Shown here piece after piece: positions 9,264-40,695 of a stretch of DNA of 64,000 nt. The stretch spans positions 17,880,161 to 17,944,160 of the forward strand of contig OV121098.1 of assembly GCA_921293015.1 (NCBI GenBank), read 5' to 3'. The translations under genes and the position numbers were made by a program. This DNA comes from Phorcus lineatus (taxonomy: Eukaryota > Mollusca > Gastropoda > Trochida > Trochidae). The notes beneath the pieces were generated by a model. The model saw only the letters and a list, made by a program, of their open reading frames with translations. It did not search any database and was not told where the DNA came from. Numbering within the stretch: the stretch's first letter is position 1; every line of letters starts with the position of its first letter.

Positions 9264-9268
9264 ACAAT
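9264..9268. other. Target-site duplication ACAAT (partner at 40170-40174)
   Basis: The five bases before the left end of copy 1 are ACAAT, part of the satellite motif TATCACAATT. The same five follow the right end of copy 2, where the satellite continues as TTGATAGTAG. The right end of copy 1 is followed by TTGTG instead. The duplication therefore pairs ends belonging to different copies. Confidence 0.75.
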
Positions 9269-9385
9269 AGTAGATATAAAAGGGGGTTTCTGGGCCACGG
9301 AATTTTTTAATATATAACTAATGTCTGAAATACATTAAAATCCTCCTTTTTAGACACACGTATTTTTTAATGTACATCTCATCTC
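9269..9385. repeat. Left terminal inverted repeat of copy 1
   Basis: Begins AGTAGATATAAAAGGGGGTT, continues CTGGGCCACGG, then carries TTTTTAATGTA-type boxes and a TTTTTAGACACACG block, and ends at CATCTCATCTCTCACTG. Its opening subtype (GGGGTTTCTGGGCC) matches the right end of copy 2, not the right end of copy 1. Confidence 0.85.
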
Positions 9386-9764
9386 TCACTGGGGATTGTG
9401 GACAGTATCTGATGGCACGATTAATAATTTTTCTTGAACAAAGCTTCTCCCTGGTCCATCTTGTAAGTAATAAAGTGTCGGTTCACCCTTTTTAGAAACA
9501 TATCGACTAATTTTATATATTTTAAGAGACCATATGGGATCCGTTGCTCTAAATCTTTGATCACCCTCGAGTTCACCCGGTTGAAATAAATATCTTACGT
9601 TAACTCTATCAGGTATTATTTTTTCATCTCTTAATAAAGGTGCAGAAGATTTAGCCACAACTGATTTTAATTTAATAGCTTTTATAGGTTTCTTATTTAT
9701 AAGTCGAGTCTCTTCATTATTTATTGCCGATATAACCTCAGGCAATCTAGTTACCCATTCGGTA
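9386..9764 (-). pseudogene. Integrase C-terminal remnant fused to polymerase (copy 1)
   Basis: Encodes the C-terminal part of the Polinton integrase, from WVTRLPEV to the end at a stop near 9386. It is nearly identical to residues 204-324 of the copy 2 integrase. The catalytic core (both aspartates and the glutamate) is gone. At TCGGTA (9759-9764) the frame passes directly into DNA polymerase sequence, giving an open 187-codon chimera that starts at the polymerase NNSVYGKT block. TCGGTA occurs at both matching sites in copy 2 (25457-25462 and 26542-26547), so the fusion looks like a 1,085-bp microhomology-mediated deletion. It should not be read as a functional gene. Confidence 0.85.
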
Positions 9765-11837
9765 TATAAAACTTCGCATTTATTTCCATATTGTTTCTTT
9801 ATCTCATTATAATAAAAGTCATACATTAAGTGTTTCGATAAGTCTAATATACTTAATGGTTCCTCTTCTTTATCATTTGTCCTAAATAATCTTACGTTTA
9901 TTCTATTCTTCACATTTTCCAAAGTTTTACCATATACAGAATTATTCATTATTTGTAAAGGTTTTTCTCAAAATCACTAGTAGCTTTCGTCCTCAAATCT
10001 GTATTCATTCTAATATACGGCTCCATCCAAGGGCTCTGATCAACTTCTGTGTATTTTAGTTAACTTCATACCCAATGAAAGATATAATTGGAGATTTCTG
10101 TAATGAATTACGTATTTACTTTTATTCATTAAGTTTGGCACTAATTTCTCTACATCGGGCATTTTTTCTCCGTTTAATAAATTATTTTGATAATCGGAGA
10201 ACCATTCTTGTTTCACCTTAAGTTTTTCAGGGGCCAATGGATACGTATTATGATTAATATGGGTCTCTTTCGAGTATTCTAAGTCTACTTCGAGAATTAA
10301 ACCCTTCTTCGAATCTTTAGGTATATTCATAATATCGAGATTCTCGTATTGTACCCACTTAAACCCACCCGTAGGTAAATATTGGCCCATTGCCCACCCG
10401 TAAAGGTTATTCGCGTCTAAGTAAAGTATGTGACTTGATGGCTTACTCGAATCATATCCCTCTACATATTTATTGTTAGCCTTGGCATGTCTCTTGGACA
10501 CCATGGATATTCCACCTCTGAGCCCTTTCTCGATAAACAAGTGCATGTCATAGTCGGTTAGTAGCTCTAGTTTTACTCCGGTTAAAGCGTCCCAGGATAG
10601 CCCTGGACCCGTGAAATAATGTGCGGGATCTAACCCATATTGTTTCGAGCAAGTCTTTCTGAAAGTTTCGAATATATCGGCCAGTAATAATACATCGGTT
10701 TTTAGATACAGATCGTGATAATCGCCTAAATTTTTACAACCGAACGAATTCCACACATTTTTAGCGTGGTTATAATCATCATCGCTTATATGACTTTCGG
10801 ATAAATTGTTATAAAATTATTCAATAGGTGGTAGTTCGGTTTCTTCAAACCTATCCCAATTATCCATATACGAGTATGAATATACTCCTTTTTTCAATAA
10901 TAAATGCCGCGTGAGTTCTCGAGTATATTGTTCAGTTATAGGGAAGTTACTATTAGCCTTTACCAAAGAATCTAAAGACATTAGAAGAAACTGACAACTA
11001 TCTATAAAACGAAGGCCACCTAAAGAAAATGATATATATCTTTCCATATTATTAGGTATACATTTTATATTGCCATCAACCTTAGAAATAGCCTGCATAA
11101 TAAGGTTCGCATCATAAAATTTCAGATTGTGAATTACTACAGGAATTACAAGCTTTTTAGGGTCTATTTTAAGTTGTAAGTTGCATTTGCTATGAGCCGC
11201 ACCACGATCGTTTCCCCTAATATGGCAGTGATCGCGTACTTTTCTCCAATCTTTATCCACAAATCCAACAATTTCTAGCTTAATTAAATTGATTCGATTC
11301 CTAATCAGTCATATCCATAGGTTTTATATCTTTTAATTGTTCAACAATATTGTCTTCAACTTCCTGAAGCCGTATTAAGAACGTCTCCGCTGCATTTGGC
11401 CCCCTATAAATGACTGGCTTCATCACTGTTCCATCACTCCTCACACCAATAAATCCAAAGCCGCACGCGTCATGTTCCTCTATTTTACGAGTAAAACTTT
11501 GATTATTATTACTGTGTTGTACATTATGAACTTTTTTATTGATACTCTCAAAACCTGCGTAAATAACCCAAGGCGCGGGCATCTGGTTTTGATAATTTTT
11601 AAAACGGAGTATTTTATCCTTCTCAGGCATATCAATTCTAACAGCAGATTTACTGACACTCCTGCAGTCGGGTTTATGTTGTTGCAGTAGGTCCTCTCTA
11701 GAATACCCATGAAGGCATCTTTCACAAAAATATTTTTTCTCCTTATGTTTAGACTGATCGAATAGAAGCCTATTTAAATTCTTTATCCACATATAATGAT
11801 ATTTAATGTCTTTCTTATCAATTTTGTATTTTTGCAA
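9765..11837 (-). pseudogene. Protein-primed DNA polymerase B, truncated and broken (copy 1)
   Basis: Visible in order on the minus strand: the zinc motif CERCLHGYSREDLLQQHKPDC, the first exonuclease block (PWVIYAGFESI, where copy 2 has ADFES, so the catalytic aspartate codon is changed), the VRDHCH...RGAAHSKCN endonuclease-like module, LKFYDANLI, YHDLYLKTDVLLLADIFE, polymerase motif A (YLDANNLYGWAMGQ) and motif B (NNSVYGKT). Motif C is deleted. Stops at about 10814 and 11280-11282, an 8-bp deletion near 10045 and several other lesions split it. The N-terminal third is missing. The family replicates linear DNA from a terminal protein. Confidence 0.9.
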
Positions 11838-11914
11838 CAATTCTCACAAAACTCTTCCCCTTTATACATTATTACTTCCTTATGGGGGCATACTTCTTGT
11901 TTCGAAGGAAGCAT
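11838..11914 (-). pseudogene. TFIIB-like gene, first 24 codons only (copy 1)
   Basis: The ATG at 11914 opens MLPSKQEVCPHKEV, which matches codons 8-21 of the TFIIB-like gene at 29968-30495. After the first zinc-ribbon cysteines (CENCC) the sequence jumps into the polymerase gene in a different frame. Relative to copy 2, about 1.6 kb is missing, between roughly 28767 and 30398. The start still has an AT-rich block in front of it. Confidence 0.8.
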
Positions 11915-11952
11915 TTTATTATACTAAATAAAAAAAATTTAAAATTTTTATA

Positions 11953-12375
11953 ATATATTATGAATGCCTTAAAGGCTTTTATAAACAAATATAATAAGTC
12001 CAGTCATACCTAAAATAATGAATGCTATTTCTCCCTCCATTTGACTACTCGAAGGAGTATAAAAATCTTCCAGAGTTGGTTGAGGTTCTAATGGTTGTAA
12101 GGGCTTACCAAATCTAATATGATATTCACGCATCGCCTCATCCACATCTTTAAAAGTTTGAATAGAATGATATTGTTTTTTTAGCTGCTCATTTAAGAAA
12201 TCGAGTCTCTCATTTCTACGTTTCTCCTATTGAAATTTAGCGGTTGATAATTTCTCTAAAGCTTTATCATGTTTTTCTCTCTCGCCCTTAGCCATTTGTG
12301 AAAATGCATGGTTACTTCCGGAGAAGGCCACAACGTTAAGTATTGCACCACCCGCCATTACTGAAAGACTTGCCA
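11953..12375 (-). pseudogene. Polinton coiled-coil/membrane small protein, nonsense mutation (copy 1)
   Basis: Counterpart of the intact 135-codon gene at 30517-30924. It begins at ATG 12375 behind TTTATAAA. A TAG replaces the tryptophan codon after AKFQ, in the middle of the charged helix, and the C-terminal hydrophobic segment is still recognisable. Otherwise it closely follows copy 2. Function unknown; the family recurs beside ATPase and capsid genes in Polintons (from memory, not checked). Confidence 0.8.
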
Positions 12376-12399
12376 TTTTATAAATAATGTATTATATCC

Positions 12400-12475
12400 T
12401 TAAGAGGTATTAACTCAGTGAGTGATTGATAGCCTCTAAAGAGGTATTAACTCAGTGAGTGAGTGATATCATTGG
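12400..12475. repeat. Short local duplication (AGAGGTATTAACTCAGTGAGTGA)n
   Basis: AGAGGTATTAACTCAGTGAG recurs twice in about 40 bp, between the small coiled-coil gene and the two-helix membrane gene. Copy 2 has a single related unit (AGAGGCATTGACTCAGGGAG near 30953). The duplication is therefore specific to copy 1. No function is evident. Confidence 0.6.
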
Positions 12476-12664
12476 GAATATATTTATTTTTAACTAGATA
12501 ATCTTTAAGCATCATTGCTCCCCCGATATAAATCATCACCATTCCAATATCTTGGGTGTACTCGTTTTTAATGCCATTTTGCTTAATTTTACCGAACCTG
12601 CAGCTAGTCCAGTCACTATTGCGGCATGGTAAAGAGTATTTATGATATCCTTTTGTTCGCTCAT
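12476..12664 (-). pseudogene. Two-helix small membrane protein, frameshifted (copy 1)
   Basis: Counterpart of the 75-codon gene at 30964-31191. ATG at 12664 follows TATATAAAT-type sequence. A 19-bp deletion near 12558 (relative to copy 2) shifts the frame after TSTPK, so the second hydrophobic segment is no longer in frame. Function unknown. Confidence 0.75.
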
Positions 12665-12736
12665 ATTTATATATTATAAATCTTTTTCTTAAAGGTGTTT
12701 TTATCAGTACTGTTATCAGTAGATGGCTTATTCAAT

Positions 12737-13042
12737 TTAGTGTAAGACAACCATTGCACCTATGCCTAGAATTCCTATTAGGATGGGAAGTGCTAGATTA
12801 CCATGATTTATAACTCGAGTCTCTTTTGCCTCGCGCTTTAATTTTCTAACCATGGCACCCTTCTTACCAGCTGCTACCTTTTTAGGATTTTTTGTGACTG
12901 TGAGTTTTTGTTCATCACTAAGTTTAACATCCCCAATAGCTTTTGTGCCACGTTTTGATTTTTTAACCACCTTCTTATCTACCTTTTTAGTGTCATCGCT
13001 AAGTTGAATATCCTCATTGGTCTTCGATATCGCTGGATTCAA
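12737..13042 (-). CDS. Basic protein with C-terminal membrane helix (copy 1, altered ends)
   Basis: 101 codons. The N-terminal two thirds is lysine-rich (KKVDKKVVKKSKRGTKAIG), followed by a hydrophobic segment (LALPILIGILGIGAMVV). Compared with copy 2, the original start appears lost (ATG to ATA near 13090), so the present ATG is internal. A 1-base insertion near 12748 replaces the charged tail after GAMVV. The frame overlaps the next gene by 29 bases. The role is unknown; a small DNA-binding or virion membrane protein is possible, but nothing proves it. Confidence 0.6.
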   Translation of the reverse strand: MNPAISKTNEDIQLSDDTKKVDKKVVKKSKRGTKAIGDVKLSDEQKLTVTKNPKKVAAGKKGAMVRKLKREAKETRVINHGNLALPILIGILGIGAMVVLH

Positions 13043-13634
13043 AGATGGTATCTACGACATCTCTGGATTCGATATTTCTGGGTTCGATATCTTTATTATT
13101 AAAACTTATATTCTTAAAGTCAACATGCTTAGCAGTTGTAATCATCATTGTAATGGGAGCCAGGTACATTCCGCACTTAGAATAAAGGTCACAACAAATT
13201 TTACTCGTAGCAATATCGATGAATGGGTCTTCATTAAGCTCTTCGAATAGCTGTGTTTTACTATCAGGAGTGATATTGAAGAAGTGACTCATAGCGTTGG
13301 AATATAAATGTAGGAAAGATTTCCCTAACGTTCTTACCATAGTCGCGCCCAGCCTACGTTCATATTTCTCATATTCTGCTATTATTTCTTCATCGGTCAT
13401 ATTGCTTATTATCTCAGTAGAAATTTTTTTATCCACAAATTTCCCACCACCCAAGACAGCATTTGTTAGTTTGTTTCTCTTATCCTCAATCATTTCTTGG
13501 AGACATATAGAGGATATCTCCCCCATGATTTCGCTTAATTCCATTCTTAATATTATGCGGCAAATTCTTAAAGCAATAATGCCCGCAAATAGTGCAAAAC
13601 CTAAACATATCAGTAATAATACAAGTGCCAACAT
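13014..13634 (-). CDS. Helical protein with N-terminal membrane segment (Polinton, unknown)
   Basis: 206 codons, open. It starts with a membrane segment (LALVLLLICLGFALFAGIIA), followed by a mostly helical soluble part with FVDKKISTEIISNM, a conserved-looking EYEKYERRLG stretch and cysteines at CCDLYSKCGMY. The counterpart in copy 2 is 229 codons because the membrane region is extended. ATG follows TTTAAATATAAATG directly. It is divergent from the ATPase gene with 36 bp between starts. I do not recognise the family. It shows no protease His/Asp/Cys pattern. Confidence 0.75.
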   Translation of the reverse strand: MLALVLLLICLGFALFAGIIALRICRIILRMELSEIMGEISSICLQEMIEDKRNKLTNAVLGGGKFVDKKISTEIISNMTDEEIIAEYEKYERRLGATMVRTLGKSFLHLYSNAMSHFFNITPDSKTQLFEELNEDPFIDIATSKICCDLYSKCGMYLAPITMMITTAKHVDFKNISFNNKDIEPRNIESRDVVDTIFESSDIEDQ

Positions 13635-13670
13635 TTATATTTAAAATTTTATGCCTTAATTATAAAAGAG
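13635..13670. promoter_or_regulatory. Divergent intergenic region with paired AT-rich start signals
   Basis: Only 36 bp separate the start codons of the 206-codon gene (minus) and the ATPase (plus). Each start is preceded within about 6 bases by a TATAAA-like block: TATAAATG towards the minus gene and TTATAAAAGAGATG towards the plus gene. Any promoters for both genes must be in or overlap this gap. Assigning promoter function is inference. Confidence 0.5.
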
Positions 13671-14276
13671 ATGCCAGAGATACTACCTAAAGATCCGCAT
13701 TGCGCTATCATTTGTGGAAAGACTGGATGCGGAAAAACTAAATTCATGTTAAACCTTATAGAAACGTATTATTACGAAAATTTTGAACACATTATTATTA
13801 TTTGTCCAACCATTAATGATAACGAAACTTATATGTCTAAATTGTGGGTAAATAATGATCCAAATGTACATAAAATTCTTCCAGGGGAACGACTTAACGA
13901 TTGTTTGAAATATTTTCACGAGAAATTCAAGAATGAACCTACCTTGTTCATAATCGATGACTGCAGTGCTGAAAGGGACTTAACTCGAAAGAAAGCCGAA
14001 TTATCTAAGCTAGCGTTCTCAGGCAGGCATACTAAACATAGCGTTTGGATTCTTTCCCAGAAATATAAATCTATACTCACAGATTTCAGAGAGCAAATTC
14101 GCTGGATTTGCTTATTTAAGTGTAAGGATAAAGATAATTTTGATGATTGTTTACGAGAGAACTATGTTATTGAAAGTAAATCCGAAATAGAAAAGGTTAG
14201 AAAACAGCTGAACAAGAAATACTCCAAACTTGTCTTATGCACCGACACACCACCATGGTATAAAGTGCTAGATTAG
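13671..14276 (+). CDS. A32-like genome packaging ATPase, intact (copy 1)
   Basis: 201 codons. Walker A is GKTGCGKTKF at about residues 16-25; Walker B is a hydrophobic strand ending in DD (TLFIIDDCS, about residues 90-98). SGRHTKHSVWILSQ follows, fitting the sensor/arginine region of FtsK-HerA type packaging ATPases of Polintons and adintoviruses. The enzyme would drive DNA into the capsid. It starts behind TTATAAAAGAG. The frame is complete, whereas copy 2 has a 2-base insertion and a nonsense codon in this gene. Its neighbours are capsid and membrane protein genes. Confidence 0.92.
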   Translation: MPEILPKDPHCAIICGKTGCGKTKFMLNLIETYYYENFEHIIIICPTINDNETYMSKLWVNNDPNVHKILPGERLNDCLKYFHEKFKNEPTLFIIDDCSAERDLTRKKAELSKLAFSGRHTKHSVWILSQKYKSILTDFREQIRWICLFKCKDKDNFDDCLRENYVIESKSEIEKVRKQLNKKYSKLVLCTDTPPWYKVLD

Positions 14277-14398
14277 CTTGATTTTGCTTGATTTTGCTAA
14301 AGTTTGCTCGGATTTTGCTAATTTTAACTTGGGTTTTTGCTAAAAAATTTCAAACACAATTGAGTTTGGAATTACTTTAACTGGCAAAATCGAGCTAA
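14277..14398. other. Convergent gap with repeated GATTTTGCT motif
   Basis: Between the tail-to-tail ATPase and capsid genes, GATTTTGCT(TGATTTTGCTAAAGTTTGCT)-type words repeat, followed by an imperfect inverted repeat around CAAACACAATTGAGTTTG. Copy 2 keeps a similar segment (32799-32902). It could serve as a bidirectional transcript end, which is an inference. Confidence 0.4.
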
Positions 14399-15634
14399 CT
14401 AATAAATAGCTGATTCAAATCTACCATTATTGATGATTAATTTAGCATCCATAATGTCATACACGTAAGCCTTAATTGGTACAGCCGTTTCTGCTTTTTT
14501 AGTTATTGCTATCGTCATTCCTTCACTAACCATTCTCAATTTGCCTACCAGAACCGTGTAATTCAGTTGTCATGCTTGTCGGTTAAGAACTTACCAATAG
14601 TCATATCCATAAGACAAAGATCTTTCATCACCATATTCGCTAATGGGTTACGTTTTATGCTGGGAAGCTTCTTAATTTCATCCCATAAGTTATATTTACG
14701 CATATCTTGACTGTACAACTGGTTTGGTACTCCTTCAATGGTCATTTGCAAGTTATTAATTTTAGGATTGTAAAATGATTCAGTTCTTCTACCAAACTCT
14801 GGGGTGGGCTCTTTAAATAACATCAAAACTCCTTTCATAGACTTGGCCGGTACATTGATGTTAATATTCCACACCGTATCACTTTTATTCAAAGGTATCA
14901 TACGATGTCGAAGTATGCGATCATAGTGTATTGGTATGGAACTATTATACATCGAATGGATTTCGCTGGCTAATTCTGACTCCTTGACTTTATCAAGTTC
15001 CAAAGCAATATTCTTGATTTCATACTTCTCCTATAATTACATTCTTATAATCATTAAATGTCAATTCATATTCTAATCTATCTCCCAATGCAGCTTGATA
15101 GAAAGGCAATGTGAGTCTCTAACAATTCAAAATCTAGAGGAATATAAAAGCGATTTCCTAGGTTATCGGCTATGGCTTTGTCTTCTACAATGGAAGCATC
15201 AACCAAGACCAGATCCCATTCTTAACCTGGTGACATTTCGATTTGCAGTTGTGTCAATACCTGTCTCTTTCTTGTGTAGTTCTCCAAAGATCTACATAAC
15301 TGTAATATATATCGCTATCATCTATAGACAATACTTCATTACTACTTATCTTAACGGTTGTTTTCTTCACAATGGAGCGACCAATATTCTGTACAATGCT
15401 ACTGTTAGCAACTTTATCACCATCCGATGTTAGGAATAAATCGAAAGCCAATCTGACCGTACCCGGGACTATGACATCGTGACTTCCAAGATTAGGAAAG
15501 CGAACTAATAGTTGTTTATTCTGATCAATAGTACTCGGATTGTTACTTACCCTAACACTGGACCTTTCTCCTTTTATACCAAAAGGCTCTCTAAAATTAC
15601 GCGATGGATTGAGTTTCAGACCGTAGTTCGACAT
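14399..15634 (-). pseudogene. Double-jelly-roll major capsid protein, broken (copy 1)
   Basis: Starts at ATG 15634 (MSNYGLKLNP) behind ATTAATAAA. The N-terminal part is intact to about 15254, where a deletion of about 17 bp shifts the frame. Further indels occur near 15110-15200, and near 15030 before the next long frame (14563-15003). Signature stretches include DLWRTTQER, IHYDRILRHRMIP and MKGVLMLFKEP. Compared with copy 2 the C-terminal part is also damaged (near 14540). The family forms the hexagonal capsomers of Polinton/adintovirus virions. This copy preserves the true N terminus, which copy 2 has lost. Confidence 0.88.
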
Positions 15635-15683
15635 TTTATTAATACATATTTTTATGTTTAAAGGAAAAACATATATTTATAAA
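15635..15683. promoter_or_regulatory. Divergent intergenic region between capsid and coiled-coil genes
   Basis: 49 bp separate the capsid start (minus) and the coiled-coil protein start (plus). AATAAAATG opens one gene and ATTTATAAAATG the other. The same region is deleted in copy 2 and replaced by a telomere-like tract (34115-34130). Promoter function is inferred from position and composition. Confidence 0.5.
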
Positions 15684-16975
15684 ATGGACGACGTCAATTA
15701 TTTTGATGACGGAGATTTCGGATATGACAGAGATGAATCTTATGAAATGGACAATCTCGATGAAAGTATTACTTCCGAAAGTTCAATCCCGAGACAGGGA
15801 TTATCGCCTAATGTGACTAGTTTACGAGATGAACTAAGAGATCCAAGAACAAGATTGCTTTAACCATCCGTGGATGATTTTTATAATAATGCCGGTGAAC
15901 CTAGTGGTGGTAGAGATTATTCTAAATTTATAGTGGATCCGGATGGAAAGCTTAAACTTAAAAGTCATCCCGAAGTGGACTTATATTACCAAAGAGGTAA
16001 GGATATAGGTGAAGTAAAGCCTCTAGAAAGTTTACGCCAAAAACTAGGGGTAAGGGGTATGCGCGAAAATTAGGGTTTTCAGATTATAAGATTAGACAAA
16101 AACTTCCCGAAAGGACTCAAATAAAACTTAATAGCCAATTGGCACAGTTGGATGAAGCAGAAACTTCCTTCAGCGAACAACCAATACAAGCCACTAATGA
16201 ATCTATTAATGCAATAGACAAAGTCCTGCAAACTATAAATGACCCACCTTTAAATACTGAGGGTTTAGAATTTAGTATTAGAGAGTTGAGGGGACTCGAT
16301 CGAGCTTTGAAAACCCAAAGAGGGGAACTAACTCATAACTTAGCTAGACTAACACACCTGGATGAAGAAATAGAACGCGAAAAAACTAAATTAACTCAAG
16401 TGGAAGGCCAAGAACAAACCGAACGCATTAAAGGAAGAATAAGAGATTTGGAACTCGAAAGGTCAGCTAGGTTAGAAGCTGCATCGACAAATGAAAGCGC
16501 CCTAAGTTCACAAATTCAACGTATAAAGCAGACTGTTAGCCAACTCTTAGACAAAGATAAATCGTTAGGCGAGCGTATTAAGATATTATTCCGAGAACAG
16601 GGCATAACAATAGCTTCTATTTTAACAGCGATAGGGTTTATGATTTCAACCATAGTTCTCTCCGTAACAGGAGGAGGAGGTGGACCAGTGCCCCCTAATA
16701 ATAATAATAAGAAATCTCCTAATAAGAGTAAAGAGTGGTTACAATATATAGGTAAAGCATTATCTAAATTAGCGGGGAAGGCTGCAGCGGCTTTACCGGT
16801 AATAATAGGAAGTATTTTATCTTGGTTTTTTACCTTCTTATCTAAAACAGCGACTTGGTTAAGTCAAAATATATGGGCATTAATGGTAGCTATAGGAGGT
16901 ATAATAATTGTGTATATAAAGCGAAGGTTATTAAATGGTGGTTATAAAAAACTAAGATCTCCAAATAATAACTAA
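15684..16975 (+). pseudogene. Coiled-coil membrane protein of Polintons, broken (copy 1)
   Basis: Starts at ATG 15684 with an acidic N terminus (MDDVNYFDDGDFGYDRDE). A TAA at 15861-15863 and a 1-base deletion near 16068 interrupt it; the last 278 codons (16139-16975) are open. They hold long heptad-like helices (ELRGLDRALKTQRGELTHNL), a conserved FREQGITIASILTAIGF segment, a glycine/proline/asparagine linker, and a C-terminal membrane helix (ALMVAIGGIIIVYIK). The FREQGITIASILTA block recurs in unnamed proteins of many invertebrate Polintons, as I recall. A minor virion or membrane-active role is plausible but unproven. Confidence 0.82.
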
Positions 16976-18266
16976 CCCTACTATTACTCCACTTAATATA
17001 ATTATACGCTTATTATAATTATGGTTTTTGAGTACCTCTGGTTTTGTTTCTTGGCCTTTCTTATATATTAATTTTGGTTCTTGGCCTTTCTTATATATTA
17101 AAGCACTCATTGGTATCCGCGGGATGTTGTGCTTTAGTTTACTCTCAGGTATTGGTTCTACATTCTTACCTAAAGTCCTATCGGTTGTCGCAATTATAAT
17201 TTTATTATTATACCCTTCCGATTTACCTACTCTTAGTTTCATATCGCTAGGAATCATGTATAAGCCATAGCCTATAACATAATCTAATCTAGAACTGGCG
17301 TATTGTAATACGTCTTCATATCTTTTTATAGAACTGGGGATATCTACTGGTCTAGCAATTGTATCTTCAACATTGGCAGTGAACGGTTTCTGGGCATCGA
17401 ATGCGGTGCCATCACCCCCGATATTAGTTCTAGTTTGCCCTTGGGCACCTAATAAAGCCCAGACATACGTTCTAATAGAATCGTTCAATCTTTGAACACC
17501 CGGTTTAGTGAACCCATTCGATTTATACAAAACAAAGGTTTGCCAATGCTCGTAAACTTGTTTTATAGCTGAAACCTGCCATTTACCATGATTTTACGAC
17601 TTGTTGTTTATCGGGATACACGTATTCATGTTTAATATGCTTACTTTATCCTCCGTACTTCATGGCATACGCATCCCTTATATTAGGTTTAGGTGTAGGT
17701 TTTGGCTGCGGTGAAAAGGACCATTTAGAAGGTGAGTAATCATCCTTTACATATGAGGTATGATTGGGATCGTTCTCAACATCCTTACCAAAACCTCTGC
17801 TGTATATAAATATGTATCCTATTCCATTATTCTTTCCACGTGAACGCCAATCACTATTCGTTGAAACATTAAATTAATTACAGATACTTTTATTTATTTT
17901 TTTTCATTTTTTTTCCCAACTGCTTTAGAAATATTATATATATTTTTTATGGGGTTTTCTTTTTTATTTTTTTTTCCACCTGCTTTAGATCTTTTCATCT
18001 GTATCACAATATTTTTTTTTTTTTTGTGGTTTTGTGTCGAATATATCGAGAAATGTTGCCTCGAAATTAGAACCCATAGCATCTACCCATATCGATTGTT
18101 CTATTACGTTTATTTCTTTTTTAGTTTTGCTACATTCGGGTTTATAATGAGGATGTTGAGAAAGAAACTTATAACTACGTTGAATTACTTCATTCCCCTC
18201 ACTATAGGCATCGTATACGCCGCCAGCATTATAACTTGCCTTATCGTTATACTTGTAGGCTGCCAT
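16952..18266 (-). pseudogene. Conserved ~430-aa Polinton protein, broken and recombined (copy 1)
   Basis: ATG at 18266 (MAAYKYNDKASYNAGG) lies behind AATAATAAAA. After an N-terminal frame to about 17985 there is a deletion of the region that encodes the FAVWCATAGCGIS block in copy 2. The central part (about 17590-17840) encodes a sequence unlike copy 2, including a PQPKPTPKP stretch. The C-terminal 192 codons (16952-17530) are open and close to copy 2: LNDSIRTYVWALLGAQGQTR, FDAQKPFTANVED, and a final membrane helix. The RTYVWA-GAQ block recurs next to penton genes in other invertebrate Polintons, as I recall. Function unknown. Confidence 0.8.
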
Positions 18267-18968: not shown

Positions 18969-18992
18969 AAGAATAAATAATAAATAATAAAG

Positions 18993-30495: not shown

Positions 30496-30516
30496 TTATA
30501 ATATATTTCAAATTCC

Positions 30517-30924: not shown

Positions 30925-30963
30925 TTTATAAATAATGTATTATATCCTTAAAGAGGCATTGAC

Positions 30964-31191: not shown

Positions 31192-31193
31192 AT

Positions 31194-32166: not shown

Positions 32167-32202
32167 TTATCTTTAAGAATTAATGTTTTAATTATAAAAG
32201 AC

Positions 32203-32798
32203 ATGCCAGAGATACTACCTAAAGATCCACGCATTGCGCTATCATTTGTGGAAAGACTGGATGCGGAAAAACTAAATTCATGTTAGACCTTATAGAAACG
32301 TATTATGACGAAAATTTTGAACACATTATTATTATTTGTCCAACCATTAATGATAACGAAACTTATATGTCTAAATTGTGGGTAAATAATGATCCAAATG
32401 TACATAAAATTCTTCCAGGGGAACGACTTAAATATTTTCACGAGAAATTCAAGAATGAACCTACCTTGTTCATAATCGATGACTGCAGTGCTGAAAGGGA
32501 CTTAACTCGAAAGAAAGCCGAATTATCTAAGCTAGCGTTCTCAGGCAGGCATACTAAACAAAGCGTTTGGATTCTTTCCCAGAAATATAATTCTATACTC
32601 ACAGATTTCAGAGAGCAAATTCGCTAGATTTGCTTATTTAAGTGTAAGGATAAAGATAATTTTGATGATTGTTTACGAGATAACTATCTTATTGAAAGTA
32701 AATTCGAAATAGAAAAGGTTAGAAAACAGCTGAACAAGAAATACTCCAAACTTGTCTTATGCACCGACACACCACCATGGTATAAAGTGCTAGATTAG
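32203..32798 (+). pseudogene. A32-like packaging ATPase, frameshifted (copy 2)
   Basis: Same gene as 13671-14276. A 2-base insertion after the ninth codon (near 32236) moves the Walker A region out of frame with the start. A 9-base in-frame deletion occurs near 32430, and the tryptophan codon after EQIR is TAG (32625-32627). Walker B (LFIIDDCS) is still readable. Copy 1 has none of these lesions. Confidence 0.88.
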
Positions 32799-32902
32799 CT
32801 TGATTTTGCTAAAGTTTGCTCGGATTTTCCTAAAGTTTCCTTGGATTTTGCTGAAAAAATTTCAAACACAATTGCGTTTGAAATTATTTTAAATCGAGCT
32901 AA
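32799..32902. other. Convergent gap between ATPase and capsid genes
   Basis: Repeated words (GATTTTGCTAAAGTTTGCT, GATTTTCCTAAAGTTTCCT) followed by an inverted repeat around CAAACACAATTGCGTTTG. The matching gap in copy 1 has the same layout. No gene here. Confidence 0.4.
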
Positions 32903-34114
32903 CTAATAAATAGCTGATTCAAATCTACCATTATTGATAATTAATCTAGCATCCATAATGACATACACGTAAGCCTTTATTAGTCCAGCTGTTTCTGCTT
33001 TTTTAGTTATTGCTATCGTCATTCCTTCACTACCATTCTCAATTCGTCTACCAGAACCGTGTAATTCATTGTCATCAGTTGTCCTAAGATCGAGCCATAG
33101 AGCATGCTTGTCGGTTAAGAACTTACCAATAGTCATATCCGTAAGACAAAGATCTTTCATCACCATATTCGTTAATGGGTTACGTTTTATGCTGGGAAGC
33201 TTCTTAATTTCATCCCATAAGTTATATTTACGCATATCTTGACTGTACAACTGGTTTGGTACTCCTTCAATGGTCATTTGCACGTTATTGATTTTAGGAT
33301 TGTAAAATGATTCAGTTATTCTACCTAACTCTGGGGTGGGCTCTTTAAATAACATCAAAACTCCTTTCATAGACTTGGCCGGTACATTGATGTTAATATT
33401 CCATACCGTATCACTTTTATTCAAAGGTATCATACGATGTCGAAGTATGCGATCATAGTGTATTGGTATGGAACTATTATACATCGAATGGATTTCGCTG
33501 GCTAATTCTGACTCCTTGACTTTATCAAATTCCAAAGCAATATTCATAATTTCATACTTCGTGTTGTCCTCTCCTGTAATTACATTCTTATAATCATTAA
33601 ATGTCAATTCATATTCTAATCTATCTCCCAATGCAGCTTGATAGAAAGGCATGTGAGTCTCTAACAATTCAAAATCTAGAGGAATATAAAAGCGATTTCC
33701 TAGGTTATCGGCTATGGCTTTGTCTTCTACAATGGAAGCATCACCAAGACCAGATCCCAATCTTAACCTGGTGACATTCCGATTTGCAGTTGCGTCAATA
33801 CCTTGGTAATGTAAACTGCCTCTTTCTTGTGTAGTTCTCCAAAGATCTACATAAGTGTAATATATATCGCTATCATCTATAGACAATACTTCATTGTTTT
33901 CTTCACAATGGAGCAACCAATATTCTGTACAATGCTACTGTTCTCATCTTTAACACCATCCGATATTAGGACTAAATCAAAAGCCAATCTGACTGTACCT
34001 GAGACTATGACATCGTGACTTCCAAGATTAGGAAAGCGAACTAATAGTTGTTCATTCTGATCAATAGTACTCGGATTGTTACTTACCCTAATACTGGACC
34101 TTTCTCCTTTTAAA
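32903..34114 (-). pseudogene. Double-jelly-roll major capsid protein, N terminus lost (copy 2)
   Basis: The last 337 codons (32903-33916) are open and carry DLWRTTQER, GNRFYIPLDFELLETHMPF, DRLEYELTFNDYKNV, IHYDRILRHRMIP and MKGVLMLFKEP, typical of Polinton/adintovirus hexon-like capsid proteins. Upstream, a 19-bp deletion near 33895 shifts the frame, and the first 20 or so codons with the start are gone, replaced by a telomere-like tract at 34115. The TAG at 32903-32905 ends the gene. Copy 1 has the complementary situation: intact N terminus and damaged body. Confidence 0.9.
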
Positions 34115-34130
34115 GGTTAGGGTTAGGGTT
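34115..34130. repeat. Interstitial telomere-like tract at a deletion junction
   Basis: GGTTAGGGTTAGGGTT, just over two and a half TTAGGG units, sits exactly where copy 2 loses the capsid start, the divergent promoter region and the first codons of the coiled-coil gene (49 bp of intergenic plus both gene ends in copy 1). TTAGGG is the telomere repeat of most animals. It looks like filler DNA added at a repaired break. Confidence 0.7.
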
Positions 34131-34135
34131 CAGTC

Positions 34136-35418
34136 AATTTGATGACAGAGATGCCGGAAATGATAGAGATGAATCTTATGTAAAAGGACAACTTAGTCGA
34201 TCTCGATGAAATGGATGAAAGCATTTCTTCCGAAAGTTCAATCCCAAGACAGGGATTATCGCCTAATGTGACTAGTTTATGAGATGAACTAAGAGATCCA
34301 AGAACAAGATTGCTTAAATCATCCGTGGATGATTTTTATAATGAAGTTGGTGAACCTAGTGGGGGTAGAGATTATTCTAAGTTTATGGTAGATCAGAATG
34401 GAAAGCTTAAACTTAAAAGTCACTCCGAAGTGGACTTATATTACCAAAGAGGTGAGAATAAAGATAAGGTAAAGCCTCTAGAAAGTTTACGCCAAAAACT
34501 AGGGGTAAGGGGTATTTGCGAAGAATTAGGGTTTACGAATTATAAGATTAGGCAAAAACTTCCCGAAAGGATTCAAAAAGAACTTAATAACCAATTGGCA
34601 CAGTTGGATGAAGCAGAAACTTCTTATCAGCGAACACCCAATACAAGCCACTAATGAATCTATTAATGCAATAGACAATGTCCTGCAAACTATAAATGAC
34701 CCACCTTTAAATACTGAGGGATTAGAATTTAGTATTAGAGAGTTGAGGGGACTCGATCGAGCTATGAAAACCCAAAGAGGGGAATTAATTCATAACTTAG
34801 CTAGACTAACACACCTGGATGAAGAAATAGAACGCGAAAAACTAAATTAACTCAAGCGGAAGGCCAAGAACAAACCGAACGCATTAAAGGAAGAATAAGG
34901 GATTTGGAACTCGAAAGGTCAGCTAGGTTAGAAGCTGCATCAGTAAATAAAAGCTAAGTTCACAAAATCAACGTATAAAGCAGACTGTTAGCCAACTCTT
35001 AGACAAAGATAAATCGTTAGGCGAGCGTATTAAGACATTATTCCGAGAACAGGGCATAACAATAACCTCTATTATAACTGCTATAGGGTTTATAATTTCA
35101 ACCATAGTACTATCAGTAACAGGAGGAGGTGGACCAGTGCCCCCTAATAATAATAAATCCCCTAATAAGATTAAAGAGTGGTTACAATATATAGGTAAAG
35201 CATTATCTAAATTAGCGGGGAAGGCTGCAGCGGCTTTACCGGTAATAATAGGAAGTATTTTATCTTGGCTTTTAACCTTCTTGTCTAAAACAGCGACTTG
35301 GTTAAGTCAAAATATATGGGCATTAATGGTAGCTATAGGAGGTATAATAATTGTGTATATAAAGCGAAGGTTATTAAATGGTGGTTATAAAAAACTAAGA
35401 TCTCCAAATAATAACTAA
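34136..35418 (+). pseudogene. Coiled-coil membrane protein of Polintons, broken (copy 2)
   Basis: Counterpart of 15684-16975. The start is deleted. Further lesions: a stop near 34279-34281, a frameshift near 34620, another near 34846, and a small deletion near 34955. Readable parts include GGRDYSKFMVDQNGKLKLK, LESLRQKLGVRGICEELGF, the heptad region, the FREQGITI stretch (here followed by TSIITAIGF), and the intact C-terminal 93 codons (35137-35418) with linker and membrane helix. The gene overlaps the end of the opposite gene by about 24 bases, as in copy 1. Confidence 0.82.
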
Positions 35419-36686
35419 CCCTACTATTACTCCACTTAATATAATAATACGTTTTTTATAATTATGGTTTTTGAGTACCTCTGGTTTTGGTTCGTGGCTT
35501 TTCTTATATATTAATTTTGGTTCTTGGCCTTTCTTATATATTAAAGCACTCATTGGTATCCGCGGGATGTTGTGCTTTAGTTTACTCTCAGGTATTGGTT
35601 CTACATTCTTACCTAAAGTTCTATCGATTGTCGCAATTATAATTTCATCGTTATACCCTTCCGATTTACCTACCCTAAGTTTCATATCGCTAGGAATCAT
35701 GTATAAGCCATAGCCTATAACATAATCTAATTTAGAACTAGCGTATTGTAATACGTCTTCATATCTTTTTATAGAACTGGGGATATCTACTGGGCTAGCA
35801 ATGGCGTCTTCTACATTGGCAATGAACTGTTTCTGGGCATCGAATGCGGTGCCATCAACTATAATACTGGTTCTAGTTTGCCCTTGAGCACCTAATAAAG
35901 CCCAGACATACGTCCTAATAGAATCGTTCAATCTTTGGACGCCCGGTTTAGTGAACCCATTCGATGTATCCAAAACAAAGGTTTGCCAATGCTCGTAAAC
36001 TTGTTTTATAGCTGAAACCTGCCATTTACCATGATCTATATATCTTAGTTTTTTACCACGATACATTAATCCCCTAAGCACATTTTGTGATTTTAGATTA
36101 AGAAAAACCCAATCCTCGGGATTATAATTGTCTTGGATCATATCCTGTTTATTAGAACTAACTTTGGGTATAAACATGTATCCCATTTCATTATTTTTCC
36201 CTCGGGGACGCCAATTAGTAGTCTTTGATACGTTAAATTCATTACAGATTCTTTCATATTTTGCGACATTGTACTGATTATTATTGGCTTCCCATGATTC
36301 CTCATGAGGTAAGGATATATCCATAACTTCTAAAATACACCTAACTTGGTAATATACGTGAAATAAAAATATTGCCTTCGTTAACCCACTCTTCGAAGAG
36401 AGATGATCTTTGTAAGATATACCACACCCTGCTGTAGCACACCACACAGCAAAATGCAGTTGATTTTGCCAAAATTGCATGGGGTTATTATTCCATTTTT
36501 CTATTTCATCTTCATTAGAAATAATAACCTCATAATTTTCGAATATATCGGTAAATTTTGCCTCGAAATTAGAACCCTTAGCATCTACCCATATCGATTG
36601 AGTCGTAAGGTTTTTTTTTTACCACCTAAATCATATACACCACCAGCTTTATAACTTGCCTTATCGTTATACTTGTAGGCTGCCAT
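35395..36686 (-). pseudogene. Conserved ~430-aa Polinton protein, one frameshift (copy 2)
   Basis: ATG at 36686 (MAAYKYNDKASYKAGG) is followed after 22 codons by a run of ten A residues (36611-36620 as T on the plus strand), where the frame is lost. The remaining 361 or more codons are open: FAVWCATAGCGIS, an FHVYYQVRCILE helix, WRPRGKNNEMGYMF, then FVLDTSNGFTKPGVQRLNDS, IRTYVWALLGAQGQTR, DAQKQFIANVEDAIA, and a C-terminal membrane helix. It is divergent from the penton gene. The family is conserved in invertebrate Polintons as I recall; a structural role is likely but undemonstrated. Confidence 0.82.
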
Positions 36687-36722
36687 TTTTATTATTTAAG
36701 GATTAAACTTTTAAATATTAAA
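36687..36722. promoter_or_regulatory. Divergent AT-rich intergenic region (copy 2)
   Basis: Near-identical to 18267-18302. AATAATAAAAATGG faces the ~430-aa gene and AATATTAAAATG faces the penton gene, forming an imperfect dyad around AAGGATTAAACTT. Promoter activity is inferred. Confidence 0.5.
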
Positions 36723-37388
36723 ATGTCGAGGCCAGAGATGTATTTGACTATCTCCAACTTTGAGAATGGACAAACGTTCGAACTAACAAGAGCTCTAGAT
36801 AATGCCGATGGAGAGATGCGAGTTGGATTATGCGAAATTTTATACTATCCTAATTGGTATAACATAAGTGAGGGGAATAATGAGTTTACAAAGGGAGAAA
36901 CAACTATAACTATTCCGGATGGTTATTATAATGTTTGTATGCTAAATGATTATTTTAAAGAGCACGGTTGTAAAGTGTCGATTAATACGGCTAATGGAAA
37001 ACTAACAATAGAAAAGATTGGAACTGAAGAAATTACCCTATTAACTCCATTGGCTAAAACTTTGGGGTTTGATTCTTCGATAGATATTACTGGCATTCAT
37101 GCTGCAAACTCTTTACCTAAATTGGCACCGTACAAAGAACTTTGCGTTCATTTAGACTGTATTAGCACTAGCGATAATATTTTTGGAGAAAAACCTTTGT
37201 CTATATTGAGAATTGTACCTGTGGAGAATGAAACTTTAAACAGTGGAAAGTACATTTCATTTACTAATCTTCAGTATAAAAGACTTAAGCTCGGGCAAAT
37301 ACCTAACTTGACAATCTCAATATTAGACACAGAAAACCAACTAATAAATATGGGTTACACGACTCTAACATTGCATTTCTTGGGTTAA
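36723..37388 (+). CDS. Single-jelly-roll minor capsid (penton) protein, intact (copy 2)
   Basis: 221 codons, same length as copy 1 with scattered substitutions. N-terminal MSRPEMYLTISNF, PNWYNISEGNNEF, GYYNVCMLNDYFKEHG, LAPYKELCVHLDC, and a beta-rich C terminus. It would occupy capsid vertices. ATG lies behind AATATTAAA. Preservation in both copies while neighbours decay is noteworthy but could be chance. Confidence 0.88.
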   Translation: MSRPEMYLTISNFENGQTFELTRALDNADGEMRVGLCEILYYPNWYNISEGNNEFTKGETTITIPDGYYNVCMLNDYFKEHGCKVSINTANGKLTIEKIGTEEITLLTPLAKTLGFDSSIDITGIHAANSLPKLAPYKELCVHLDCISTSDNIFGEKPLSILRIVPVENETLNSGKYISFTNLQYKRLKLGQIPNLTISILDTENQLINMGYTTLTLHFLG

Positions 37389-37412
37389 AGGAATAAATAA
37401 TTAATAATAAAG

Positions 37413-38300
37413 ATGACGGACTCTGGCGGACCTAGGTACAAAAGTTGTAAGAAAGTCAGCACAAATCTTTTTGATAATGCTGGGAAAGAAAACAGTGAAT
37501 ACATTATTCAATATAAAGATAGAAAATATCAACTGATCGAAAATGAAAATAGAGGAACCAAACTTAGTGAATTAGGGGATGTTAGAATTATGGATAAAGA
37601 ATTACCGGGAATGTATGGTGAGGGGGTATATACAATTTATAGAAGCCCAGACAATCTTGTATACATGATTAGCCGCTTACCTAGGTGGATTTTAAATATT
37701 AGGATTACTCCGAGGAATACAATACTGGTTACGAGGCAACATTTTCTAAAGGAGATTACAAATGAAGGCCTGGCGATGATATCGTATAAACCCCCAAGTT
37801 TGAGAAGTGTTGTAGCTACTTTGGGAAACTTCCCAAATTTCCCCATACCAGCGTTTTAAAGATATAAAAAACCTAATTTTCGCAATGAAATTTTTCTATC
37901 TCTTGTAGATGAATTTGAAGAAATAAAACATCGGGATTTGCAACTTGATACCCATTTTTTATTAGAATTAGAATTAATGGGGCAATCTGATGATTTTGTT
38001 ACAATTTTACCCGGATTAAGAATAAAATGGGAAAAAAGAGGATATTATTGGATTTATATAGTACTGGGTGGGGAGGGTATCACGTACATACCAAAATGGC
38101 AGATTAACTTTGGTATGCGTAATGCCCCTCACTTTGAATACGAAATAGGTGGAGATTCGCTTAAGTTTGAACATGGAATAGATCGAGATTCGATTAAGTT
38201 TGATAAAATTTACTTACCTAATAATGTATCACTTATAGGGTTAACGTCTGCTCGTGGTGATTTTGATCCACATTTAGCTATTAACGCCAATAGCTTTTAA
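37413..38300 (+). pseudogene. Protein A of the A/B pair, one nonsense codon (copy 2)
   Basis: About 295 codons from MTDSGGPRYK, behind TTAATAATAAAG. One in-frame TAA (37857-37859) splits it; copy 1 has a sense codon there. Blocks shared with protein B: MTDSxGP start, RLPRWILNIRITPRN against EPKWELDIYLNPVN, RQHFLKEITNEGLAMISY against RRHFLNKIINSGSALVSY, and DDFVTILPGLRIKW against DDFVTILPGLNIKW. The similarity runs in the same order along both proteins, so they are tandem paralogues. No membrane segment or known domain was recognised. Confidence 0.78.
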
Positions 38301-38345
38301 TGTGCGGTATAATTGAATTAAAAGAATAAATAATAATTAATAAAG

Positions 38346-39230
38346 ATGACAGATTCAAGTGGGCCGCATCAAACAATTGACAGATGTTTGAATACGGGTA
38401 TAGCAAATCTAGGTGACCTCGAAAACTTTGACTTACCAGGAGAAGTAGGTAAAATATATGCCCTTCAATTAACTAATTTTGGAGTCTATAAACGAAAAGA
38501 AGTTGATCCGGGAGGAGGTTCTGTAGATATTTTTAATGGTGATGGTGTCGAGGATAAAACTTATGGCTTTTTATTTAAAAATGGTAATTATAATAAGATG
38601 GAATTAAACGATTTTGATATTACAGCTCTCGAGACTTTGACTGAACCGAAGAAGGTAATACAATATTACACCAATAACCCAAGAAAACTTACGTATATCG
38701 TAGAACCGAAATGGGAATTAGATATTTATCTAAATCCCGTGAATACAATAATTGGAAGGCGGCACTTCCTCAATAAAATCATAAACAGTGGAAGTGCATT
38801 AGTATCTTATTCACCAAAGAGAAAGAATGGCGTCAAAGTTGTTAATGATGATGGGGAGTATGGTTTAACTAGAAATGATGTTCTTAAACCTAATATTCCG
38901 GTTTCTCTATCAGGTTTTGAAGAATTTACTGAAAAGAATTACGGTGATTATATTTATATAGCTATGAATTTAGGGACTGTACCCGATGATTTTGTAACGA
39001 TATTACCCGGACTAAACATTAAATGGACTGTTCCAAATAAGTCTCTGTATATGCTTATAACACCCGATGAGATAAATCATAATTTAGAAGGCGAGATTAC
39101 ACTAGAACGCCCTAGTGGGAGTAGGATCAGAGTTACTACAATACCTATGCCTAATAATATAGTTTTTAAAAGATTAATGTCTACTTCTCAACCAATTTCA
39201 AAAGACTATCTACGGACCTTTAAGGATTAG
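38346..39230 (+). CDS. Protein B of the A/B pair (copy 2)
   Basis: 294 codons from MTDSSGPHQ, behind ATTAATAAAG. The N-terminal part is acidic with GGGSVDIFNGDGVEDK; the middle and C-terminal half share blocks with protein A (see there). After RIRVTTIPMPNNIVFKRL the frame continues into MSTSQPISKDYL, the same words that open the upstream-extended frame of protein C in copy 1. It then ends at a stop created by one extra base relative to copy 1. The end of B and the start of C may therefore once have been continuous. Function unknown. Confidence 0.75.
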   Translation: MTDSSGPHQTIDRCLNTGIANLGDLENFDLPGEVGKIYALQLTNFGVYKRKEVDPGGGSVDIFNGDGVEDKTYGFLFKNGNYNKMELNDFDITALETLTEPKKVIQYYTNNPRKLTYIVEPKWELDIYLNPVNTIIGRRHFLNKIINSGSALVSYSPKRKNGVKVVNDDGEYGLTRNDVLKPNIPVSLSGFEEFTEKNYGDYIYIAMNLGTVPDDFVTILPGLNIKWTVPNKSLYMLITPDEINHNLEGEITLERPSGSRIRVTTIPMPNNIVFKRLMSTSQPISKDYLRTFKD

Positions 39231-39246
39231 TTCCTAATATAATAAA

Positions 39247-39771
39247 ATGCGGTCCATATTAACGAGCGACGTCGATGAATTTCGCTTGAATAGAATAAGC
39301 GAGATAAAAGATGAGATTATTAAAGAGTACGACTTTCACATGGCTAAAAGTAAATCCATTAAAAAAGCTTTAAATGTAACGGAAACACTGGATACAACAT
39401 TAATTACTTATAGTAGTATCGCATTAGGAGCTAGTGGTGTATGTGTCTTAGCAACCGTGATTATGGCACCCGTAAGCATCGGAATCATGGTTTCTGCGAC
39501 TATAACCAGTCTCCTTGGAACATCGATGAAGGTTGCGTCCAAGAGGTTATGTTCTAAACTTAAAAAACATGAAGATATATGTATTATCGCAAATTCTAAA
39601 TTAAATACCATTTCTAGCCTTATTTCTAAAGCTTTAGATGATGACTGTATCTCTAATGAGGAATTTAATCTTATTACGGCTGAACATTCAAACTTTTATG
39701 AAATGATAAGCCAAATTAAATCTCAAAAGATTGACAGAGAAAATGTTATAGAAATGTTTAAGAAAGACTAA
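39247..39771 (+). CDS. Helical membrane protein C of Polintons, intact (copy 2)
   Basis: 174 codons. N-terminal charged helices (EFRLNRISEIKDEIIKEYDF), KKALNVTETLDTTLITYSS, a hydrophobic core of two segments (IALGASGVCVLATVIMAPVSIGIM and the following SATITSLLGTSM), then KLKKHEDICIIANSKLNTIS and SKALDDDCISNEEFNLI. This organisation, with a glycine/alanine-rich hairpin followed by the SKLN block, recurs in unnamed proteins of metazoan Polintons, from memory. ATG 39247 was chosen because AATATAATAAAATG precedes it. The role might be membrane remodelling; that is speculation. Confidence 0.78.
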   Translation: MRSILTSDVDEFRLNRISEIKDEIIKEYDFHMAKSKSIKKALNVTETLDTTLITYSSIALGASGVCVLATVIMAPVSIGIMVSATITSLLGTSMKVASKRLCSKLKKHEDICIIANSKLNTISSLISKALDDDCISNEEFNLITAEHSNFYEMISQIKSQKIDRENVIEMFKKD

Positions 39772-39787
39772 CCCTTATATACAATAA

Positions 39788-39809
39788 TCATATCCAAAGT
39801 TGGATATGA
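39788..39809. terminator. Candidate 3'-end hairpin downstream of gene C (copy 2)
   Basis: Same hairpin as 21203-21224 (CATATCCAA-AG-TTGGATATG), 17 bases after the stop of gene C. The sequence beyond it is unrelated between the copies. Confidence 0.5.
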
Positions 39810-39934
39810 GCCGTTGCATAAAAGACATATTGATCGGCCCAAGCTGCTACATCCCAGGCGAGGAGTAACCTATTCACTATATGCATACCTAACTAGGTCG
39901 GGTCGACCAATATCAATAAAATATTTTGGTCCCC

Positions 39935-40169
39935 GATGAGATGTATTTCATACATTAAAAAATACGTGTGTCTAAAAAGGAGGTTTTTAATGTAATTCAT
40001 ACATTAGCTATACATTAAAAATTTCCCGTGGTCCAGAACCCCATCATTTTTTAATGTACTTCGTACATTAAAAAATATGTTTGTCTAAAAGGAGGATTTT
40101 AATGTATTTCATACATTAGCTATACATTAAAAATTTCCCGTGGCCCAGAAACCCCCTTTTATATCTACT
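39935..40169. repeat. Right terminal inverted repeat of copy 2, internally duplicated
   Basis: From GATGAGATGTATTTCATACA to CCTTTTATATCTACT. Two modules of about 115 bp, each with TACATTAAAAA/TTTTTAATGTA boxes, a GTCTAAAAAGGAGG or GTCTAAAAGGAGG block, and CCCGTGG-CCAGAA. In reverse complement it opens AGTAGATATAAAAGGGGGTT, the subtype of the left end of copy 1. Confidence 0.85.
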
Positions 40170-40695
40170 ACAATTGATAGTAGTAAAGCTTGAATGTAGT
40201 CGAAATCTCAATTTTGATACGCTATTCACGGTTTTAACTCAATTGATTTTGCTTTTGATAGTTATATCACACAAAATTGTAAAATCATATAATAAACTTT
40301 AAATTCCGATTTAAACTGCGTTTGACCAGTTCAATGGCATTATATCGATAAGTTTAGTTACGAATATATTCATTTCTTTCAAATTTCTAATTTTTTAGAA
40401 AATTAAAGTGGTATAGGCTAAAGTGTAAAAAGGTTTACTCCGATTGTTTTGAAAGGATCAAGGTTGTTATTTGGCAACCTATGATAGACACTATGACCAT
40501 TTTTTATGTAGGTTGTTTAATATCGCAATTGATAAAGTGAAGTGAAACACTGTCTTCTGCTATTGTTTTCAAAGATTCAATGTTGTTATCTGGCAACCTA
40601 TGATGGACAGTATTGAACGTTTTTTATGTAGTTTGTCAACTATCACAATTAATTAAACTTTAAATTCCGATTTAACCTGCGTTTGACCAGTTCAA
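40170..40695 (+). repeat. Satellite array, forward units right of copy 2
   Basis: Begins ACAATTGATAGTAGTAAAGC, which continues the satellite unit exactly from the point where it stops left of copy 1. It runs forward for about one and a half units, then breaks near 40700, where orientation reverses (CATTGACAAACTACATAAAA). Confidence 0.88.

What the first reader, a model, noticed from the sequence alone, without database searches (positions are those of the whole stretch)
9264..40174. Target duplications and terminal subtypes are swapped between the two Polintons
Seen directly: ACAAT flanks the left end of copy 1 and the right end of copy 2; TAGTG/TTGTG flanks the left end of copy 2 and the right end of copy 1. 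The terminal subtype agrees (GGGGTTTCTGGGCC pairs left 1 with right 2; GGCTGTACCTGGACCC pairs left 2 with right 1), and so does satellite orientation (forward outside, reverse between). The inter-element array also begins and ends at the same point of its unit. Inference: two independent insertions recombined within the element, for instance when a satellite circle carrying one element integrated into the other by homology. Both elements would then be hybrids, and the 31-kb block behaves like one composite insertion with a 5-bp duplication.
Basis: partly seen in the sequence, partly recalled or inferred. Interest (0 to 1): 0.78.

Follow-up and report, generated by a model that had tools for sequence, protein, structure and literature searches.

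The report
Two Polintons with swapped ends
Two giant virus-like transposons sitting in one small satellite array have exchanged ends by recombination, so each copy seen today is a hybrid of two separate insertions; it is an unusually clean fossil of a known kind of event.

Summary
Left 1 and right 2 share ACAAT and the G-type end word; left 2 and right 1 share TAGTG/TTGTG and the T-type word. Flanks joined in the swapped pairing restore native satellite; joined within each element they do not. Sixteen other complete copies in the same genome give the rule: the ends of a copy share the end word (0-3 mismatches in 35), and 11 of 16 have an exact 5-bp duplication, 2 an exact 6-bp one. Elements 1 and 2 break it (11 and 9 word mismatches); the swapped pairs fit. 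The exact T word was found at no Polinton end elsewhere and the satellite nowhere else, so the exchange was local. Best reading: homologous exchange between two independent insertions; a satellite circle or two inversions fit equally. The crossover could not be mapped, and TIR unit number does not follow the swap. Assembly error is unlikely but unchecked without reads.

The parts
6961..9268 (+). Left satellite array, forward units (more diverged 6961-7513, younger 7514-9268; my division), ending in ACAAT
   Evidence: self-comparison; found only at this locus
9264..9268 (+). 5-bp target word ACAAT, left copy
9269..21921 (+). Element 1 (12.65-kb Polinton; left end G word, right end T word, ends from different insertions); DNA polymerase B pieces on the minus strand, frames broken
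21922..21926 (+). TTGTG, one copy of the second target word (one mismatch to TAGTG)
21922..24852 (-). Inter-element satellite array, units reversed relative to the left array; opened at the same point of its unit at both ends
24848..24852 (+). TAGTG, other copy of the second target word
24853..40169 (+). Element 2 (15.3-kb Polinton; left end T word, right end G word); integrase (rve) in ORF 25084-26061 minus, DNA polymerase B pieces in ORFs 26754-28211 minus
40170..40174 (+). 5-bp target word ACAAT, right copy
40170..40704 (+). Right outer satellite in forward orientation, up to 95.9% like the left array, only about 0.5 kb
40705..42942 (-). More diverged satellite in reverse orientation beyond the right outer array
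41074..41522 (+). Copy of the left-2 junction (24480-24928) inside older satellite: satellite plus TAGTG plus 76 bp of T-type Polinton left end (stub 41447-41522)

Best explanation
Two Polintons of one family inserted independently into the same small satellite array: X (G-type ends, 5-bp target ACAAT, satellite forward relative to the element) and Y (T-type ends, target TAGTG/TTGTG, satellite reversed relative to the element). Later a homologous exchange between X and Y, which are about 90-95% alike in their longer aligned blocks, put Y and its satellite inside X. The order is now satellite-ACAAT-X left...Y right-TTGTG-satellite(reverse)-TAGTG-Y left...X right-ACAAT-satellite. Shown: the swapped pairing of target words, end words and satellite register. 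Inferred: that exchange by homology did it, and the route. Two conservative routes give the same product: (i) Y pops out with a satellite circle and recombines into X; (ii) X and Y, inverted to each other in one forward array, recombine and invert the spacer, then the satellite arms flanking element 2 recombine and invert it. I slightly favour (i) because it needs only a direct-repeat pop-out plus one crossover, but nothing here separates the two. The confidence given covers exchange by homology whatever the route, including the copying route listed among the rivals.
For: Swapped joins restore native satellite (93 of 94 aligned bases outer; 93 matches, 4 mismatches and one 1-base gap inner), while within-element joins match only one of their two 50-base halves. 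In 16 of 16 other complete pairs the two end words differ by 0-3 of 35; elements 1 and 2 differ by 11 and 9, swapped pairs by 2 and 0. TIR substitution is 0.6-7.2% in the 16, but 16.4% in element 1 and 9.7% in element 2; swapped pairs 5.7% and 1.4%, over 107 and 69 bases. Target words: 11 of 16 exact at 5 bp, 2 of 16 at 6 bp; swapped pairs 0 and 1 mismatch, own pairs 5 and 5 (4 and 2 if a 1-base slip is allowed). The exact T word is at no Polinton end elsewhere. The satellite was found only here. By exact search there is one left and one right T end besides the stub, as conservative routes predict. The inner TIR units of element 2 differ between its ends (TTC against AGC) although they agree in 8 of 9 comparable control copies.
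Against: No crossover point could be mapped: private substitutions of the two bodies show no step (122 against 100 over 9,065 columns, two left windows overlapping by 100 bases). Near the left end element 1 has more (6 against 2), as expected if its left part is the older X, but near the right end it has more as well (23 against 11), opposite to a younger Y right part (trees agree); that X is older rests on short TIRs only. TIR unit number follows the present elements, not the swap: one unit at left 1 and a shortened one at right 1, two at both ends of element 2. Four control copies are mosaic relative to both. The inner target words differ at one of five bases. No reads were available to confirm the assembly. 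The stub needs an extra event.
Confidence: 0.85

Rival explanations
1. Copying rather than exchange: a double-strand break in X was repaired from a Y-satellite-Y template (tandem Y, circle, or a template jump between satellite units), leaving the donor Y in place. (A sub-route of exchange by homology; its odds are inside those of the best explanation.)
For: The 41074-41522 patch looks like such a repair: it matches the left-2 junction with 4 mismatches and 2 gaps, runs into 76 bp of element end, and sits in old satellite that appears to resume in the same unit phase (the phase is my reading of the alignments).
Against: No donor Y with two T ends was found in the assembly: the exact searches give the T word only at right 1, left 2 and the stub among Polinton ends. 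A donor with mutated ends or on another haplotype would be missed.
Confidence: 0.2
2. Assembly artefact: a chimeric path between two haplotypes or two Polinton copies.
For: Repeats flank every junction; no reads could be checked.
Against: The longest exact match between the elements is 234 bp and the larger aligned blocks differ by 5-10%, so long accurate reads should not confuse them; the genome is in 74 contigs. The sequencing type is not stated; long reads are my inference.
Confidence: 0.08
3. The 31-kb block moved as one composite transposon: integrase acted on left 1 and right 2 and made the ACAAT duplication.
For: The outer ends share the 5-bp word exactly and their first 35 bases but for 2.
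Against: It does not explain why the inner ends share their own private word and target word, nor why the inner array opens and closes at one point of its unit. No other locus with this satellite was found from which the block could have come.
Confidence: 0.04
4. Chance: two independent, unrelated insertions whose flanking five-base words and end words match crosswise by accident.
For: Five-base words are short.
Against: Mis-paired control flanks match exactly in 1 of 240 and within one mismatch in 7 of 240; end words and satellite register agree as well.
Confidence: 0.01

Closest known systems
Inter-element (ectopic) recombination of LTR retrotransposons and endogenous retroviruses
   Same: Hybrid elements betrayed by high divergence between their two terminal repeats; PMC1779541 (passages seen) attributes unusually high LTR-LTR divergence of a chimpanzee element to inter-element recombination or conversion.
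   Different: Here a DNA transposon with terminal inverted repeats; both partners of the exchange survive side by side, with the satellite giving an extra register check.
Polinton/Maverick elements
   Same: rve integrase core, family B DNA polymerase, terminal inverted repeats, 12.7 and 15.3 kb.
   Different: Target duplication is mostly 5 bp here, against 6 bp reported for vertebrate Mavericks (PMC8097293, passages seen).
Satellite circles (eccDNA) excised and reintegrated
   Same: A proposed route of satellite spread; PMC13192020 (passages seen) discusses excision, reintegration and satellites that stay on one chromosome.
   Different: Here the circle would carry a transposon and use the transposon as the homology; no circle was observed.

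Membership tests
Polinton/Maverick | Retroviral-type integrase | tested here: met
   PF00665 rve, E 1.7e-9, 38.3 bits against a cut-off of 32.6, in element 2 ORF 25084-26061 minus; not found in the ten element 1 ORFs given
Polinton/Maverick | Protein-primed family B DNA polymerase | tested here: met
   PF03175 above the curated cut-off in one ORF of each element (27306-28211 and 10040-10816), below it in a second ORF of each; protein priming itself not tested
Polinton/Maverick | Terminal inverted repeats | tested here: met
   16 control copies and both elements
Polinton/Maverick | 6-bp target duplication | tested here: not met
   5 bp exact in 11 of 16 copies, 6 bp exact in 2 of 16; the 6-bp figure is for vertebrate Mavericks (PMC8097293, passages)
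Polinton/Maverick | Capsid, ATPase and protease genes | tested here: inconclusive
   No such match among the ORFs given to Pfam and PHROGs (10 ORFs); one ORF compared with PDB sequences. Frames are broken and remote matches were not sought by structure
Reciprocal inter-element recombinant | Target words mismatched within each element, matched between elements | tested here: met
Reciprocal inter-element recombinant | Terminal repeats mismatched within each element, matched between elements | tested here: met
   but TIR unit number does not follow the swap
Reciprocal inter-element recombinant | Crossover point where sequence lineage switches | tested here: inconclusive
Composite transposon | Inner target words independent of each other | tested here: not met
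   inner words match at 4 of 5 bases and in satellite register
Satellite circle integrant | Free circle carrying the element, or an allele without it | not testable with these tools
   no reads or second haplotype

The most novel reading that the evidence does not exclude
A circle made of satellite DNA and a Polinton popped out of this single-locus array and re-entered through a second Polinton by homology, so that a transposon served as the landing pad for satellite movement and inverted a stretch of array in one step. Recombination in arrays would then be a natural source of Polintons with two different ends.
Probability: 0.4. Interest if true: 0.55.

Novelty: new variant of a known kind. 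Interest (0 to 1): 0.45.

Why it matters
Both products of an exchange between two large DNA transposons are preserved side by side and can be diagnosed by three separate marks: target words, end words and satellite register. It shows that Polinton copies in a genome can be end-to-end hybrids, which matters for dating copies by their terminal repeats and for defining families by end type. It also ties the inversion of a satellite block to a transposon pair.

Tried and rejected
Simple inversion between X and Y alone: it would leave element 2 in the opposite orientation and its left word as ATTGT; rejected on orientation and on the flank joins.

Crossover inside the terminal repeat: considered because element 1 has one TIR unit (shortened on the right) and element 2 two at both ends. 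The inner units of element 2 differ between its ends in the variable triplet, which points inward; body substitution counts give no step and local trees give element 1 the longer tip at both ends. Left unresolved.

Relatives in IMG/VR: none for the end pattern; ten stretches matched integrase patterns but none encoded a relative. Ectopic partner elsewhere: set aside, since two satellite probes matched only here (the tool warns that very common words are skipped). C16:30680121 has the exact T word in what reads to me like zinc-finger coding sequence, without a Polinton tip. The 15 one-mismatch T-word sites were not looked at one by one; their number is no higher than the backward control (19 sites in all against 21).

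Literature: searches for Polinton with satellite DNA, with recombination and target site duplication, with extrachromosomal circular DNA, with hybrid and ectopic recombination, and for eccDNA reintegration and inter-element recombination listed no paper whose title or abstract start describes a Polinton end swap. I saw listings only, except passages of PMC8097293, PMC13192020, PMC10085805 and PMC1779541.

Dropped before counts: the pair C5:29706138/29706437 (300 bp apart, one end not TIR-like) and unpaired ends (such as C32:13065932) were left out of the 16 control pairs, which were formed by position and strand only. Two of the 16 TIR alignments (C9:51627485, C37:40441933) do not start at the tips.

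Full report
WHAT IS THERE. The window is G000:C41:17880161-17944160 of a 957.8-Mb assembly in 74 contigs. The few named relatives of the integrase are metagenome proteins filed under Thiodiazotropha and Sedimenticola, which I recall as bivalve symbionts; the named relatives of the polymerase are from an octocoral and a sea slug. The host is therefore a marine invertebrate, perhaps a bivalve; that is inference. Element 1 spans 9269-21921 and element 2 24853-40169, in the same orientation; aligned blocks over 390 bp are 89.5-94.8% identical, shorter ones down to 78%, with large insertions and deletions between them. Element 2 has an integrase core and both have DNA polymerase B pieces; frames are broken. 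Satellite lies left, between and right.

THE SWAP. ACAAT stands at 9264-9268 and 40170-40174; TTGTG at 21922-21926 and TAGTG at 24848-24852. Joined across the swapped pairing, 50-base flanks align to native satellite through the junction: outer 93 of 94 bases, inner 93 matches with 4 mismatches and one 1-base gap. The within-element joins align over one 50-base half only, which is the flank finding itself. So the array, not only the five-base words, says which ends belong together.

CONTROL COPIES. The exact end AGTAGATATAAAAGG occurs 47 times in the genome, the 5 window sites included (the backward control gives 7). From these and near variants in the fetched pieces I formed 16 other complete pairs by position and strand. 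End words of one copy differ by 0-3 of 35 bases in 16 of 16; different copies differ by 3.8 on average and at most 8. Elements 1 and 2 differ by 11 and 9 within themselves and by 2 and 0 when swapped. Target words: 11 of 16 exact at 5 bp, 2 of 16 exact at 6 bp, one exact only with a one-base slip, one with one mismatch, one with two. Mis-paired flanks match exactly in 1 of 240 and within one mismatch in 7 of 240. TIR substitution is 0.6-7.2% in the 16 copies, 16.4% and 9.7% in elements 1 and 2, and 5.7% and 1.4% in the swapped pairs (short alignments for the swapped pairs, 107 and 69 bases).

PRIVATE WORD, PRIVATE SATELLITE. The T word GGCTGTACCTGGACC has four exact sites in the genome: right 1, left 2, the stub, and a place on C16 that is not a Polinton end. 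Sites with up to one mismatch number 19, against 21 in the backward control, and were not looked at singly. The G word is common: 16 sites, two of them not at element tips, so the shared T word is the stronger mark. Two satellite probes, one from the left and one from the middle array, found matches only inside this window (27 and 29 matches; the tool may skip very common words). The exchange was therefore most likely local: same chromosome, sister or homologue.

On the right the forward array lasts only from 40170 to about 40704, then more diverged reverse satellite follows. Inside it, 41074-41522 copies the left-2 junction 24480-24928 with 4 mismatches and 2 gaps: satellite, TAGTG and the first 76 bases of the T-type end (76 of 76 identical). 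Satellite upstream of it is 70-87% like the corresponding middle array in 60-base steps. I read it as a repair patch: a break in old satellite copied from the Y junction and was then closed. If so, sequence of the Y junction was transferred within the locus at least once, beside the main exchange.

MECHANISM. Shown: swapped ends, restored target sites, satellite found at one locus. Inferred: an exchange by homology between X and Y. Pop-out of Y with a satellite circle followed by recombination into X, or two successive inversions in an array that first had X and Y in opposite orientation, give the identical product. A single inversion does not. Both routes conserve material, and exact searches find just one left and one right T end beside the stub; a copying model would leave a donor Y that was not found, though it could be on the other haplotype or have mutated ends.

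CROSSOVER. Not mapped. Relative similarity of four other copies to elements 1 and 2 switches many times, so copies are mosaic. Private substitutions are 122 (element 1) against 100 (element 2) over 9,065 columns without a step. Element 1 has more at the left end (6 against 2) and also at the right end (23 against 11); the second speaks mildly against a younger right part in element 1. TIR unit number pairs the ends within the present elements (one unit and a shortened one in element 1, two and two in element 2), which does not follow the swap and would fit an exchange close to an end or later unit loss. Inner TIR units agree between ends in 8 of 9 comparable control copies but not in element 2, which speaks mildly for an exchange inside the body.

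VERDICT. The kind of event is known from retroelements; the satellite register, the preserved pair and the private end word make this case clean. Interest is moderate.

Noticed in passing
41074-41522: About 450-bp copy of the left-2 junction, with a 76-bp Polinton stub, inside older satellite that seems to continue in phase on both sides.
   Followed up: yes
L069-L071 (C15:48836654-48859136): A 22.5-kb copy with an internal direct duplication and the only two-base mismatch of target words among 16 copies, though its TIRs differ by 0.6%.
   Followed up: partly
L011 and L012 (C11:22655152-22655930; C12:22278592-22280223): Very short copies, 779 and 1,632 bp, with both ends and exact 5-bp target words.
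   Followed up: no
L062-L065 (C11:22496790-22531234): A 34.4-kb copy with exact target words and about 14 kb of mostly unmatched sequence inside.
   Followed up: no
16 control copies: Target duplication of this family is mostly 5 bp, not the 6 bp reported for vertebrate Mavericks.
   Followed up: yes
21225-21850 and 39810-39950: The inner right end differs in kind between the elements; the element 1 type gives 50 listed matches in the genome.
   Followed up: partly
22038-23968: The middle array holds a 940-bp higher-order repeat, two copies 98.2% alike.
   Followed up: no
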